The notes beneath the pieces are model-generated. The model saw nothing but the letters and a program-made list of their open reading frames with translations. It did not search any database and had not been told where the DNA came from. The position numbers and the translations under genes were made by a program. Positions 58,557-62,445 of a stretch of 62,445 nt of DNA are shown piece after piece; positions within the stretch are counted from its first letter, which is position 1, and each line of letters begins with the position of its first letter. The stretch comes from Singulisphaera sp. GP187 (GTDB lineage Bacteria; Planctomycetota; GCA-002687715): NCBI GenBank assembly GCA_945907755.1, contig CAMDTN010000009.1:1-62445 (forward strand), given 5' to 3'.

Positions 58557-59198
58557 TCAGCCGCGCCGTTGGATCAGAACAGCGAAGTCGCAGTCGTCCT
58601 CGGCTTCCATGCGGCTGGGCGTCACGCCTTCCAGCGCGAGCGCCTGACCGGCGGTGAGCACAAGGCGCTTGTCCTTGGCTTCCACCACCAGAACACCGTG
58701 GTGCACGATGATGCTCATTGCATGAGCAACACCCAGTTCTGGAGCCACCGCAACTGCTCCACGACGACCTTCACCCAACAGAATCTCTGTTTGCCCCATG
58801 CTCAGCGCATGAAAATGAAACGTACCGGCGCGCACTTCGCGAGTGTTCTGCACGCTGGTATCCGTTCGCTCTGCAAGCGCCAACAGGCCGAAGGTGCTGA
58901 TGCCCAGTCCTTCGGCGATGCGGTCGAGAGTATCCAGATTGGGTTTGATCAGATTGGTTTCGATGCGCGAAATCGGTGCGTACGACAAGCCACATTCGCG
59001 CGCAAACTTCTCGATGGTCAGGCCCTTTTTCTGGCGCAACGCGCGAATGACACTGAAGTCATAGCGACGACGCACCTCTCCGGCGCGTTGATGCCGCGCT
59101 GGCACTGGGCTGGGGCCTGACTCCGCTGCCGCAAGCTCGCCGCCGTTCCCGCGAGCTGCGCTCGGACTCAAAGACTGGTCGTGAAACTCCTTGGGCAT
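58557..59198 (-). CDS. XRE-family regulator with C-terminal cupin-like domain
   Basis: 213 residues from ATG 59198 (GGAG 8 bp upstream). A 45-residue polar N-terminus precedes a helix-turn-helix domain (about 48-105: IRALRQKKGLTIEKFARECGLS with PISRIETNLIKPNLDTL). The last 90 residues are strand-rich (AMSIIVHHGVLVVEAKDKR, LTAGQALAL), as in the small-molecule-sensing cupins fused to such regulators. It would repress or activate a promoter in response to a ligand; targets are unknown. Convergent with the SUMF1-like gene, 6 bp apart. Confidence 0.82.
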   Translation of the reverse strand: MPKEFHDQSLSPSAARGNGGELAAAESGPSPVPARHQRAGEVRRRYDFSVIRALRQKKGLTIEKFARECGLSYAPISRIETNLIKPNLDTLDRIAEGLGISTFGLLALAERTDTSVQNTREVRAGTFHFHALSMGQTEILLGEGRRGAVAVAPELGVAHAMSIIVHHGVLVVEAKDKRLVLTAGQALALEGVTPSRMEAEDDCDFAVLIQRRG

Positions 59199-59300
59199 AG
59201 CAGACACTCCAGGGGGCTCGTGGGCACTGAATCCCCAGTGCCGTTATCGGATGCGGGCGGCGGTTGGTGACAGTCAGTCCTGCCGCGCGCACAGATTTCG

Positions 59301-60371
59301 TTACTGATCGAGAGCGATCAGCACGGTGTCGCCAGTGTCGGGGTTGCCTTCCGCAGCGCGCAGCACTAACCCCGGCAGGGATTCGATCTGCCCGATCAGC
59401 AAATCGGCAAGCGCGTCACGACCGACGAGGAACAACGTGTAACGCTGTTCGACGCGGTCGCGCACCACGGCTCGATTGGCTGCCCATTCCAAAGCCCCGC
59501 GCCGCGCGGCGGCACCTTGCGCCAAGTCCAACGCCTGCACCGGGGTCTTGCTGCTGCGCACCAGTAGGGCGTGCACCGCGTCGCTGCTCTTCGGCCCGCT
59601 CACTGTGTAGATGCGCCGCTCGACGGTCACCACGGCATCCTTAGATTTCCTCTTTGCATCCGAGAAAGCGCCTTGCTCAGACTTCGTAGCCACCGCAACC
59701 TCGATGGGCGCTGGCGCCGCAACGTCATCGATCAATTGCTGCACCGCCGCCGAGGTGGATCCACAGCTCAGCACGCCCCGCGCAACTTCGGCGGCGCTCA
59801 CCCCACGCTCGGATTGTTGCGCATCCTCATCAGCGTCATGCGCCAGTCCGAGGGCCAACTCTGGCAGTTCCTTCAGCGCTCGCTGCTGTAAGAACAAGAT
59901 CGCGTTGCTCCGAAAGATCACTTCTCCTGGATCTTGAGTGATCTGCTCTGCATTGGGCGCAGCGGTGACGGACGCCTCCACGAGTGCAGCATCCAACGCC
60001 TCGGCTCTCATGGCTGGGGCCGCAGCAGCCTCCAATGCCGGGGCAGGCTCGGGTTCTTGCAGTACCAATGTTGTCAGGGCCGCGAGCAGCAGCACGGATG
60101 CCGCGATGCGCAGACCCCGCATGCGCTGCCAAGCAGACCGCTGCGGCACCATTTGCGCACAGATCCGTTGCGCCAATCCCTGCGGCGCGGCCATCTGCGG
60201 CGCTGCGCGCAATAACAGCCGCTGCATCGCGTAGTTTGCCGCGGCGGCATGACACGCCGGACACAGCGCGAGATGGGCGCGCAACGCTTCCAACTCTTGG
60301 GTATTCACGCGTTGGTCCAATTGGGCCGAGGCCAGGGTGCGCGCGTGCGTGCATGCTGCTGGCAAGGTCAT
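59301..60371 (-). CDS. membrane-bound anti-sigma factor with zinc motif
   Basis: 356 residues; its ATG overlaps the stop of the ECF sigma gene (ATGA). The N-terminal anti-sigma domain has HxxxCxxC (H33, C37, C40), the zinc motif of ZAS proteins. One membrane helix (about 88-104) follows, and then about 250 residues outside the membrane that could sense envelope state. The sensor part ends in a strand-helix domain (about 255-355). It should hold the sigma factor inactive until a signal arrives. Confidence 0.85.
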   Translation of the reverse strand: MTLPAACTHARTLASAQLDQRVNTQELEALRAHLALCPACHAAAANYAMQRLLLRAAPQMAAPQGLAQRICAQMVPQRSAWQRMRGLRIAASVLLLAALTTLVLQEPEPAPALEAAAAPAMRAEALDAALVEASVTAAPNAEQITQDPGEVIFRSNAILFLQQRALKELPELALGLAHDADEDAQQSERGVSAAEVARGVLSCGSTSAAVQQLIDDVAAPAPIEVAVATKSEQGAFSDAKRKSKDAVVTVERRIYTVSGPKSSDAVHALLVRSSKTPVQALDLAQGAAARRGALEWAANRAVVRDRVEQRYTLFLVGRDALADLLIGQIESLPGLVLRAAEGNPDTGDTVLIALDQ

Positions 60372-60946
60372 GCGCCACGCCCTCCCAGAGTCTCGCGCAA
60401 CCGCTCGCGGGCTCGAAACAAACGCGAGCGCACGGTGCCCGCAGGAATCTCTAGGACCGCCGCAATTTCTTCGTAGGAACGGTCCTCGACGTCGCGCAAC
60501 ACAATGATCTCTCGGAATTCGAAGGGCAACTGTTGCAGCGCTGCCAGCACCAGTGCCACGCGCTCGGCTTGTTCAAGCGCCTGAGATGGGTCCGATGCCA
60601 CCGCTGGTTCCGCCACCTCGCCTGCTTCGGTGCCGATACTCGCGGACACGACAGGCCGCGCCGCACGGGCGCGGGCTGCGGAAATCACCGTGTTGCGGCC
60701 GATGCGGTAGAGCCACGTGTAGAACGCACTCTGACCATCGAAACCGCGGATGCCGCGCCAGGCCCGCAAGAATGTCTCTTGGGTGAGGTCCACTGCCAGC
60801 TCCGAATCGCCACACAACCTGTGAATAAATGCATGCAGGCGCTCTGCGTGCTGTTCCACAAGTGCAGTGAAGGCTTGCGCGTCCCCGAGTCTGGCCTTGG
60901 CGACCAGCTCGGCTTCAGCGCGAGGCGCTTCACCCGATGGGCTCAT
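60368..60946 (-). CDS. ECF-type RNA polymerase sigma factor
   Basis: 192 residues from ATG 60946; an upstream in-frame GTG at 60958 is possible. Region 2 has FTALVEQHAERLHAFIHRL and LTQETFLRAWRGI; region 4 has LPFEFREIIVLRDVEDRSYEEIA and GTVRSRLFRARERLRE. It is of the RpoE-like ECF group. It is translationally coupled to its anti-sigma factor and lies 31 bp after the 91-residue gene that follows BMC-T. Confidence 0.93.
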   Translation of the reverse strand: MSPSGEAPRAEAELVAKARLGDAQAFTALVEQHAERLHAFIHRLCGDSELAVDLTQETFLRAWRGIRGFDGQSAFYTWLYRIGRNTVISAARARAARPVVSASIGTEAGEVAEPAVASDPSQALEQAERVALVLAALQQLPFEFREIIVLRDVEDRSYEEIAAVLEIPAGTVRSRLFRARERLRETLGGRGA

Positions 60947-60977
60947 GCTTGGACGCACTTTCTAAGCGCTGGTTCCC

Positions 60978-61253
60978 TCAGCAGCGCTCGAGATCGATGC
61001 GGTTAGGGCGGGTCTTGGACACGAGATAGGTCACCGACGCGCCGCCTTCTTTCGCCGGCCAACGCAGTGCCTGCAGGCCTTTCTTGAAGCGCGCCTCGCC
61101 GGGCAGGATGGAAACGGTCGCGCCCTCTTCGAGGATCACCGCATAGCGGAAACGGACATCCGGCGCATCCGTTGGCCCAAACCATGTGAAATTGGCGTCT
61201 GCTGTGCTCTTTTTGGGGTCAGGGCCGAGGCTGGGTTTGAAACCGGTATTCAT
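60978..61253 (-). CDS. small protein of unknown function
   Basis: 91 residues from ATG 61253 with AAGGAG upstream. It lacks a signal peptide or membrane segment. The sequence looks like a compact strand-rich domain (FRYAVILEEGATVSILPG, ASVTYLVSK) with Arg/Lys near the end, and ends in Cys. I do not recognise it. It is between BMC-T (21 bp upstream) and the ECF sigma gene (31 bp downstream), in the same direction, so it is probably part of that operon. Confidence 0.6.
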   Translation of the reverse strand: MNTGFKPSLGPDPKKSTADANFTWFGPTDAPDVRFRYAVILEEGATVSILPGEARFKKGLQALRWPAKEGGASVTYLVSKTRPNRIDLERC

Positions 61254-61274
61254 AAAACTCCTTGCGGACCGCCC

Positions 61275-61877
61275 TCAGGCGATGAGGAAATCGCTAAACG
61301 GAATGGTGGATTGCATGAACGCGTCGCGCAGGCGCGCATCCGGGTTCGGCAACACCACAGCATTCACATATTGCCCACGCTCGCGCGCGAGCTGTGTGCC
61401 AGCGTGCAGGGCCGATTCGACATCGCTCTGTGCGCCGGTGAAAGTAAAAAATGCCTTGCCGCCCAGCCCCATGGCCAAGCGCATTTCGAGCAACTGCACT
61501 ACAGCAGTTTTTGCTGCACCATCAGCAGCGAGAAGCGCGGAACACAGCGAACTCGTTTCGATGATGCCAACGGAAGCGGTGACCTTCGGATGGCTTTGAC
61601 CTGAAAGAGTAGGCAACAGCGTTGGATGCGGCAGTGCGAGGAACAATGAGTCCAGCACGAACGCGCCACCGATTTCTGCGCCACGACCGAGCGAGCGCCG
61701 CACGGCTTCTACGCTGCCGCGAAAGAGCGCCACGAAGCGCCCAGGGGTGACAGGACGCAACGCGAGAAAGGTGATCTCGGCCTCTTTGGCCATAGCATCA
61801 GCCGCAAGCAGACCTTGGGCGATGCTCGTCCACTCGAGCATGCCCAAAGGTTCGCTGACGGGGGCCCGGCGCTGCAC
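61275..61877 (-). CDS. tandem-domain bacterial microcompartment shell protein (BMC-T)
   Basis: 200 residues from GTG 61877; a TTG three bases earlier and ATG 61841 are other options. Two BMC domains follow one another: the first begins LGMLEWTSIAQGLLAADAMAK (about 11-90), the second ASVGIIETSSLCSALLAADGA (about 99-190), each with the typical Ala-rich helix and later AEIGG or ESALHAG segment. BMC-T proteins form pseudohexameric trimers, often with a gated pore, in protein shells that enclose enzymes. No hexamer, pentamer or enzyme gene is in the window; any would have to lie beyond its right edge or elsewhere. Confidence 0.88.
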   Translation of the reverse strand: MQRRAPVSEPLGMLEWTSIAQGLLAADAMAKEAEITFLALRPVTPGRFVALFRGSVEAVRRSLGRGAEIGGAFVLDSLFLALPHPTLLPTLSGQSHPKVTASVGIIETSSLCSALLAADGAAKTAVVQLLEMRLAMGLGGKAFFTFTGAQSDVESALHAGTQLARERGQYVNAVVLPNPDARLRDAFMQSTIPFSDFLIA

Positions 61878-61880
61878 CAA

Positions 61881-62445
61881 TTACCTGCGGCGACGCGGAC
61901 GCTTCAGAGTCGACCCCGTCGGCTGAGCGGCTCCGCCGCCATCCCAAACGATGTCAAACCCAGTCTCGGCTGCCGTTTCGGGCGCGGCCGCACGCGGTGC
62001 AGAAACCGGTGCTGGTGCGCTTGCACGTGCGGGTTCGTCCCAGACGGCGGTGAAGCCTGCGGATGGAGCAGCCACTGGCTGCGCCGCTACTGGCGCAGTA
62101 GCGGGACGCTCGGGCGGCCCGACCACATCGTCTTGGCGCGGAGGACGCGGTGCGCCGCGTTCTTCATGCCGCGGGCGACGATCCCGACGATCGCCACGCT
62201 CAAAGCGGCCTTCGCTGCGCCCACCCTCGCCGCGGCCATCGCCGCGTTCGGGATGCACTTCGCGATTCTGTACGGGCTCTGGTGCGCGTTCCATCTGCGG
62301 TGCGCGCTCACCGCGCGGCTCTGCAGCGCGTTCACCGCGCGGCTCTGCAGCGCGTTCACCGCGCGGCTCTGCAGCGCGTTCAAAACGCAGCTCACCTTCA
62401 CCGCGCACTTCGTTGGGGTTTCCTGGACGACGATCACCGCGCGGC
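61881..62445 (-). CDS. C-terminal part of a protein with a long disordered tail
   Basis: The frame is open to the right edge, so only the last 187 residues are visible. They are low-complexity: Arg/Glu/Gly-rich repeats (ERAAEPRG three times), a Pro/Ala-rich stretch and a basic end (KRPRRRR). Two similar motifs, GFTAVWD and GFDIVWD, lie in the last 70 residues. Tails of this kind occur on DEAD-box helicases and RNase E-like proteins, but the folded part is missing and I cannot assign it. It ends 3 bp before BMC-T. Confidence 0.6.
   Translation of the reverse strand, partial: PRGDRRPGNPNEVRGEGELRFERAAEPRGERAAEPRGERAAEPRGERAPQMERAPEPVQNREVHPERGDGRGEGGRSEGRFERGDRRDRRPRHEERGAPRPPRQDDVVGPPERPATAPVAAQPVAAPSAGFTAVWDEPARASAPAPVSAPRAAAPETAAETGFDIVWDGGGAAQPTGSTLKRPRRRR
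62306..62377. repeat. three tandem copies of a 24-bp unit
   Basis: Copies at 62306-62329, 62330-62353 and 62354-62377; the last two are identical and the first differs at one base. In frame they encode three ERAAEPRG-type units of the disordered tail on the minus strand. Copy number could vary between strains. Confidence 0.9.

What the first reader, a model, noticed from the sequence alone, without database searches (positions are those of the whole stretch)
59301..62445. BMC-T shell protein in one run with an ECF sigma/anti-sigma pair
Five minus-strand genes are packed with gaps of 3, 21 and 31 bp and one ATGA overlap: disordered protein, BMC-T, a 91-aa protein, ECF sigma factor, membrane anti-sigma factor. 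Known microcompartment loci carry hexamer, pentamer and enzyme genes; planctomycete loci described so far are of the fucose/rhamnose type. Here only a tandem-domain shell protein is seen with a signalling pair. It may be an unusual microcompartment controlled by envelope stress, or a BMC-T used outside a classic compartment.
Basis: partly seen in the sequence, partly recalled or inferred. Interest (0 to 1): 0.7.

Follow-up and report, generated by a model that had tools for sequence, protein, structure and literature searches.

The report
Cut-off end of a nucleoside-degrading microcompartment operon
The lone shell gene is the tail end of a normal bacterial organelle operon whose start was lost at the end of the contig; the organelle probably breaks down the sugar of DNA building blocks, and its unusual features are a neighbouring membrane-linked gene switch, lost in some relatives, and a vertex protein with a long floppy tail.

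Summary
The gene run is real, but "only a BMC-T with a signalling pair" is an artefact of the contig end. The window is a whole contig (C9) that stops inside the "disordered protein". In two same-genus genomes that protein is the tail of a BMC-P pentamer, preceded by a BMC-T(dp), a BMC-H and an aldehyde dehydrogenase (AldDH). In the own genome, contig C2 breaks inside the neighbouring M16 peptidase gene, so about 4.2 kb holding those genes is unassembled. A second, conserved locus on contig C25 encodes three more BMC-P, RpiB, DeoC and a nucleoside phosphorylase, beside nucleoside-salvage genes. DeoC plus RpiB is the published signature of SPU metabolosomes (deoxyribose/DNA catabolism). So this is half of a split SPU/HO-like metabolosome. 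The ECF sigma/anti-sigma pair lies next to the shell genes in most of the order and recurs downstream of this BMC-T in at least four other families (5 of 68 loci, 0.6 expected). Yet it is decayed in one same-genus genome and absent in two others that keep the shell operon, so it is accessory. New details: the sigma/anti-sigma linkage, a BMC-P with a disordered tail ending in a VWD motif and poly-Arg, and an unknown 91-aa beta protein.

The parts
61881..62445 (-). C-terminal disordered tail of a BMC-P (EutN/CcmL) pentamer gene, cut 5' by the contig end; the pentamer domain itself is beyond the edge
   Evidence: Aligns to the BMC-P tail of G001 (shared FTAVWDEPAR, GFDIVWDGGG, STLKRPRRRR); full G002 gene has PF03319 at residues 1-79
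61275..61880 (-). BMC-T1, PduT-like single-layer tandem BMC shell protein (201 aa)
   Evidence: PF00936 x2; TIGR02526 109 bits; best PDB matches 3nwg and PduT 3n79
60978..61253 (-). p91, 91-aa protein of unknown family, predicted six-stranded beta fold
   Evidence: Conserved in families f1 and f3 of the order, plus f29 without this BMC-T; no Pfam or NCBIfam match; model pLDDT 80
60368..60958 (-). ECF sigma factor
   Evidence: PF04542, PF08281; TIGR02937 115 bits; one of 16 sigma-r2 matches in the genome
59301..60371 (-). Membrane anti-sigma factor with N-terminal zf-HC2 zinc finger (ZAS type)
   Evidence: PF13490 over cut-off; HLALCPAC motif, TM 86-104
58557..59207 (-). XRE-family regulator, kept next to the operon in all ten order genomes whose downstream flank was read, including those without the sigma pair
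   Evidence: PF01381; conserved downstream

Best explanation
The finding is the 3' half of the main shell operon of a split SPU/HO-like metabolosome in an uncultured Planctomycetota lineage. Nucleosides enter through NupC and are cleaved by nucleoside phosphorylases. Inside the shell DeoC splits deoxyribose-5-phosphate into glyceraldehyde-3-phosphate and acetaldehyde, and the AldDH turns the confined acetaldehyde into acetyl-CoA. BMC-H, CcmP-like BMC-T(dp), PduT-like BMC-T and BMC-P paralogues form the shell. The pathway rests on gene content; encapsulation and chemistry are inferred. The ECF sigma and membrane anti-sigma are most likely co-transcribed with the shell genes and modulate them or a linked response. 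That step is inferred from position only, and since the pair is lost in some relatives it is accessory.
For: Same-genus G001 and G002 carry the full run AldDH > BMC-H > BMC-T(dp) > BMC-P with tail > BMC-T > p91, with sigma and anti-sigma intact in G002. AldDH matches TIGR02518 acetylating acetaldehyde dehydrogenase at 539 bits (cut-off 620) and PDB 5j78. BMC-T2 matches CcmP/HO BMC-T(dp). In G000 the M16 peptidase gene that flanks AldDH breaks at the end of contig C2 (query residues 342-898 only), and AldDH, BMC-H and BMC-T2 are missing from the assembly. Satellite locus G000 C25: BMC-P, RpiB (PF02502), BMC-P, BMC-P, DeoC (PF01791), nucleoside phosphorylase, converging on NupC, PNP, CDA; BMC-P x3 + RpiB + DeoC conserved in all seven order genomes read. 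Published SPU definition: PF01791 plus PF02502, DNA catabolism (PMC8217296; PMC4207490).
Against: AldDH, BMC-H and the BMC-P pentamer domain of this operon are not seen in G000 itself; their presence is inferred from synteny. The two loci lie on different contigs and joint assembly is not shown. No PduL phosphotransacylase (PF06130) in seven order genomes. Encapsulation peptides are only suggested by short helices; hydrophobic moments were mostly low. The Sutter HMMs and trees were not run, so the SPU subtype is not assigned.
Confidence: 0.88

Rival explanations
1. The ECF sigma/anti-sigma pair directly controls the metabolosome: a membrane or envelope signal releases sigma, which transcribes the shell operon that also encodes sigma (positive feedback).
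For: Tight spacing in the window; pair kept in families f1, f2 and f3 of the order; 5 of 68 BMC-T1 loci outside the order have ECF then anti-sigma within 2.6 kb downstream on the same strand, 0.6 expected, P about 4e-4 not corrected for kinship; a sixth lies slightly further (L060).
Against: Sigma has a stop and a frameshift and the anti-sigma a large deletion in G001, whose shell operon is intact; pair absent in G007 and G011; no obvious shared ECF promoter upstream of AldDH by eye; most BMC-T1 loci of the phylum lack it.
Confidence: 0.35
2. The sigma pair is a neighbour kept by slow chromosomal rearrangement (RecG, FtsW, PBP2 region) with no functional tie to the compartment.
For: Synteny extends to XRE, FGE-sulfatase, DUF1858 and RecG on one side and M16 peptidase and FtsW on the other; RecG is also near in L053 and FtsW/PBP-like genes in L046 and L060.
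Against: Recurs directly after BMC-T1 in four or five other families, while most flanking genes differ there; co-oriented with gaps of 19-31 bp or an overlap.
Confidence: 0.45
3. A solitary BMC-T that works outside any compartment, as an envelope-stress effector.
For: It is the only PF00936 gene in the G000 assembly.
Against: Full operon in same-genus, same-family and same-order genomes; contig ends inside BMC-P; flanking M16 gene broken at another contig end; three further BMC-P genes in the same genome.
Confidence: 0.02
4. A metabolosome of unknown substrate (MIC/FRAG class), with the DeoC/RpiB locus belonging to a different compartment.
For: No signature enzyme beside the main locus; the loci are unlinked; FRAG types with BMC-P triplets are reported in Planctomycetes.
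Against: No other BMC-H or BMC-T in G000, so the satellite has no other shell to join; AldDH is of the acetaldehyde type, which DeoC would feed.
Confidence: 0.1

Closest known systems
SPU (sugar phosphate utilization) metabolosomes, SPU1-7 (Axen 2014, Sutter 2021)
   Same: DeoC (PF01791) plus RpiB (PF02502), acetaldehyde-type AldDH, CcmP-like BMC-T(dp), several BMC-P; DNA or nucleoside catabolism
   Different: Genes split into two loci; four BMC-P, one with a long disordered tail; ECF/anti-sigma, p91 and XRE genes attached; no PduL found
HO (Haliangium ochraceum) BMC, type I with satellite
   Same: Published type I satellite has BMC-P genes with an aldolase; BMC-T(dp) and BMC-P match structures 5v76 and 5v74
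   Different: Satellite here also has RpiB and a nucleoside phosphorylase, beside nucleoside-salvage genes; sigma/anti-sigma pair beside the main locus
PVM microcompartment of Planctomycetes and Verrucomicrobia (fucose/rhamnose)
   Same: Phylum; AldDH-based metabolosome
   Different: No PF00596 aldolase in either BMC locus; only unlinked PF00596 genes elsewhere, none in G009
ECF sigma with ZAS (zf-HC2) membrane anti-sigma
   Same: Sigma r2 and r4 domains, HxxxCxxC finger, single TM, 4-bp gene overlap
   Different: Encoded directly after microcompartment shell genes; not linked to BMCs in the main texts read

Membership tests
SPU metabolosome | DeoC-type PF01791 aldolase among BMC genes | tested here: met
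   G000 C25, next to three BMC-P; same in six relatives
SPU metabolosome | RpiB-type PF02502 among BMC genes | tested here: met
   L171:8135-8995, E 2e-48; conserved in all seven
SPU metabolosome | PF00171 AldDH in the BMC locus | tested here: inconclusive
   Present in the order relatives whose contigs extend to it; in G000 the place is an assembly gap
SPU metabolosome | BMC-H, BMC-P and BMC-T shell genes | tested here: met
   BMC-T and BMC-P in G000; BMC-H only in relatives
SPU metabolosome | CcmP- or CsoS1D-like BMC-T(dp) (reported for SPU2, SPU3 and SPU5) | tested here: met
   NF053796 CcmP 300 bits, cut-off 340; PDB 5v76, 4ht5; in relatives only
SPU metabolosome | Signature enzymes in the main locus | tested here: not met
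   They are in a separate satellite locus; satellites are allowed in the catalogue
SPU metabolosome | Placement by the published type-specific HMMs and AldDH tree | not tested
   Supplementary HMMs not available
PVM | PF00596 class II aldolase in the BMC locus | tested here: not met
   None in either locus; unlinked matches only
HO | BMC-P triplet, aldolase in a satellite | tested here: met
   Three BMC-P plus DeoC on C25; clade membership of the triplet not tested
ECF/ZAS anti-sigma pair | Sigma r2 and r4; zf-HC2 with HxxxCxxC; TM helix | tested here: met
ECF/ZAS anti-sigma pair | Anti-sigma binds this sigma and controls it | not testable with these tools
   Needs a binding assay

The most novel reading that the evidence does not exclude
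A nucleoside-degrading metabolosome whose shell operon is switched by a membrane anti-sigma/ECF pair encoded in the same transcript. Its vertices carry long Arg/Glu-rich disordered tails ending in a conserved VWD motif and poly-Arg that may tether or space the organelle.
Probability: 0.3. Interest if true: 0.6.

Novelty: new variant of a known kind. Interest (0 to 1): 0.36.

Why it matters
It turns an apparent oddity into a concrete metabolic prediction, nucleoside/deoxyribose breakdown in a split SPU-like organelle of uncultured Planctomycetota. It also shows how a contig end inside a repeat-rich gene can make a standard operon look exotic. If the sigma link is functional, it would add membrane-gated ECF control to the known BMC regulators. 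The tailed pentamer is a testable lead on how metabolosomes are anchored or spaced.

Tried and rejected
A solitary BMC-T was rejected by relatives and contig breaks. The enzyme-less compartment I first read in G001 and G002 was my gene caller missing AldDH; direct six-frame translation found it. A p91 role in c-di-GMP binding was not adopted: Foldseek hits to PilZ are weak (best E 0.02, none below 0.001), and I saw no RxxxR or [DN]xSxxG PilZ motif (recalled) in the alignment. An ECF promoter shared upstream of AldDH or of the satellite was looked for by eye and not found. Encapsulation peptides on AldDH and DeoC are plausible but not shown by hydrophobic moment. The genome-contig scan with the BMC-T found nothing; p91 gave eight named loci. 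Where the BMC-P C-terminus points (outside or lumen) was not settled by the paper passages read.

Full report
Observation. The five minus-strand frames exist with the stated spacing. Pfam confirms two BMC domains in the 201-aa protein, ECF regions 2 and 4, and a zf-HC2 anti-sigma; the 91-aa protein and the disordered frame match nothing. The anti-sigma has HLALCPAC at residue 33 and one hydrophobic stretch at 86-104. The window is the whole contig C9 of a 2.68 Mb, 97% complete assembly, and the disordered frame runs off its right end.

The right edge is an assembly break. In the same-genus genomes G001 and G002 the order is AldDH > BMC-H > BMC-T(dp) > BMC-P with a long disordered tail > BMC-T > 91-aa protein. 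In G002 intact ECF sigma and anti-sigma genes follow; in G001 they are decayed (below); an XRE gene comes next in both. The window's disordered frame aligns with the G001 BMC-P tail down to the shared end STLKRPRRRR, and the full G002 protein has a PF03319 pentamer domain at residues 1-79. In the relatives a divergent M16 peptidase gene lies beyond AldDH. In G000 that gene is present only from residue 342, exactly at the end of contig C2, while BMC-T(dp) and AldDH are absent from the assembly and the two domains of this BMC-T are the only PF00936 matches. Using G001 spacing, about 4.2 kb is missing between C9 and C2.

What the compartment does. The AldDH matches the acetylating acetaldehyde dehydrogenase model TIGR02518 at 539 bits, under its strict cut-off of 620, and PDB 5j78. 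BMC-T(dp) is CcmP- and HO-like and the window's BMC-T is PduT-like. A search for further BMC-P genes found a second locus in G000 (C25) and in six order relatives. It reads BMC-P, RpiB, BMC-P, BMC-P, DeoC, nucleoside phosphorylase, and in G000 it converges on cytidine deaminase, purine nucleoside phosphorylase and the NupC transporter. PF01791 plus PF02502 is the shared signature of SPU metabolosomes, proposed to degrade deoxyribose from DNA (PMC8217296; PMC4207490), and HO type I loci have a satellite of BMC-P genes with an aldolase. Since G000 shows no other BMC-H or BMC-T, the satellite most likely shares this shell. PduL was not found in seven genomes, and the PVM aldolase is not in either locus.

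The sigma/anti-sigma pair. Within the order it is kept beside the shell genes in G000, G002, G003, G004, G006, G008 and G009. In G001 the sigma gene has a stop and a frameshift and the anti-sigma is a deletion remnant, while the shell genes are intact. G007 and G011 lack both genes but keep the shell operon and the XRE gene. In a phylum sample, 68 BMC-T1 loci outside the order were read; five, in four families, have ECF then anti-sigma within 2.6 kb downstream on the same strand, against 0.6 expected from the ECF rate elsewhere in the same loci (Poisson P about 4e-4, kinship not corrected). A sixth (L060, a fifth family) lies slightly further. So the linkage is more than chance but dispensable. 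No link between BMCs and ECF sigma factors turned up in the paper search, and the main texts of the two catalogues do not use the term sigma factor; supplements were not read.

Other features. BMC-P tails in families f1 and f3 are Arg, Glu, Pro and Gly-rich, 185-270 residues long where read in full, with a conserved [FL]xxVW[DE]-like motif and an RRRR or RRRK end; the f2 tail (G008) is acidic and lacks it. The 91-aa protein occurs in f1 and f3 and, without a match to this BMC-T, in family f29; it is predicted as a small beta protein with only weak PilZ-like matches.

Shown: gene content, order, conservation, contig breaks, decay of the pair in relatives. Inferred: the missing genes in G000, co-transcription, co-assembly of the two loci, the deoxyribose pathway, and any regulatory role of the sigma pair.

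Noticed in passing
L171:7888-13689 (G000 C25:13887-19688): Conserved SPU satellite: BMC-P, RpiB with N-terminal extension, BMC-P, BMC-P, DeoC, nucleoside phosphorylase, converging on CDA, PNP and NupC.
   Followed up: yes
L171:9545-10405, L172:9672-10538, L175:10073-10933, L176:5220-6125: The DeoC N-terminal extension carries a conserved Cys cluster (C-x2-C-x3-C-x3-C) in f1 and f2, absent in f3 (L177); possibly metal or Fe-S binding.
   Followed up: no
L033:8974-9870 (G001): ECF sigma with in-frame stop and frameshift; anti-sigma reduced to N- and C-terminal remnants.
   Followed up: yes
L078-L082 (family f29): p91 homologues in genomes in which no relative of this BMC-T was found, in varying neighbourhoods.
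   Followed up: partly
L035:5121-5849: Sirtuin-like gene inserted between anti-sigma and XRE in G004; rhodanese-like genes near the operon in G007 and G009.
   Followed up: no
L139, L143, L144, L046, L053, L060: BMC-T1 loci of other Planctomycetota families followed by an ECF/anti-sigma pair.
   Followed up: partly
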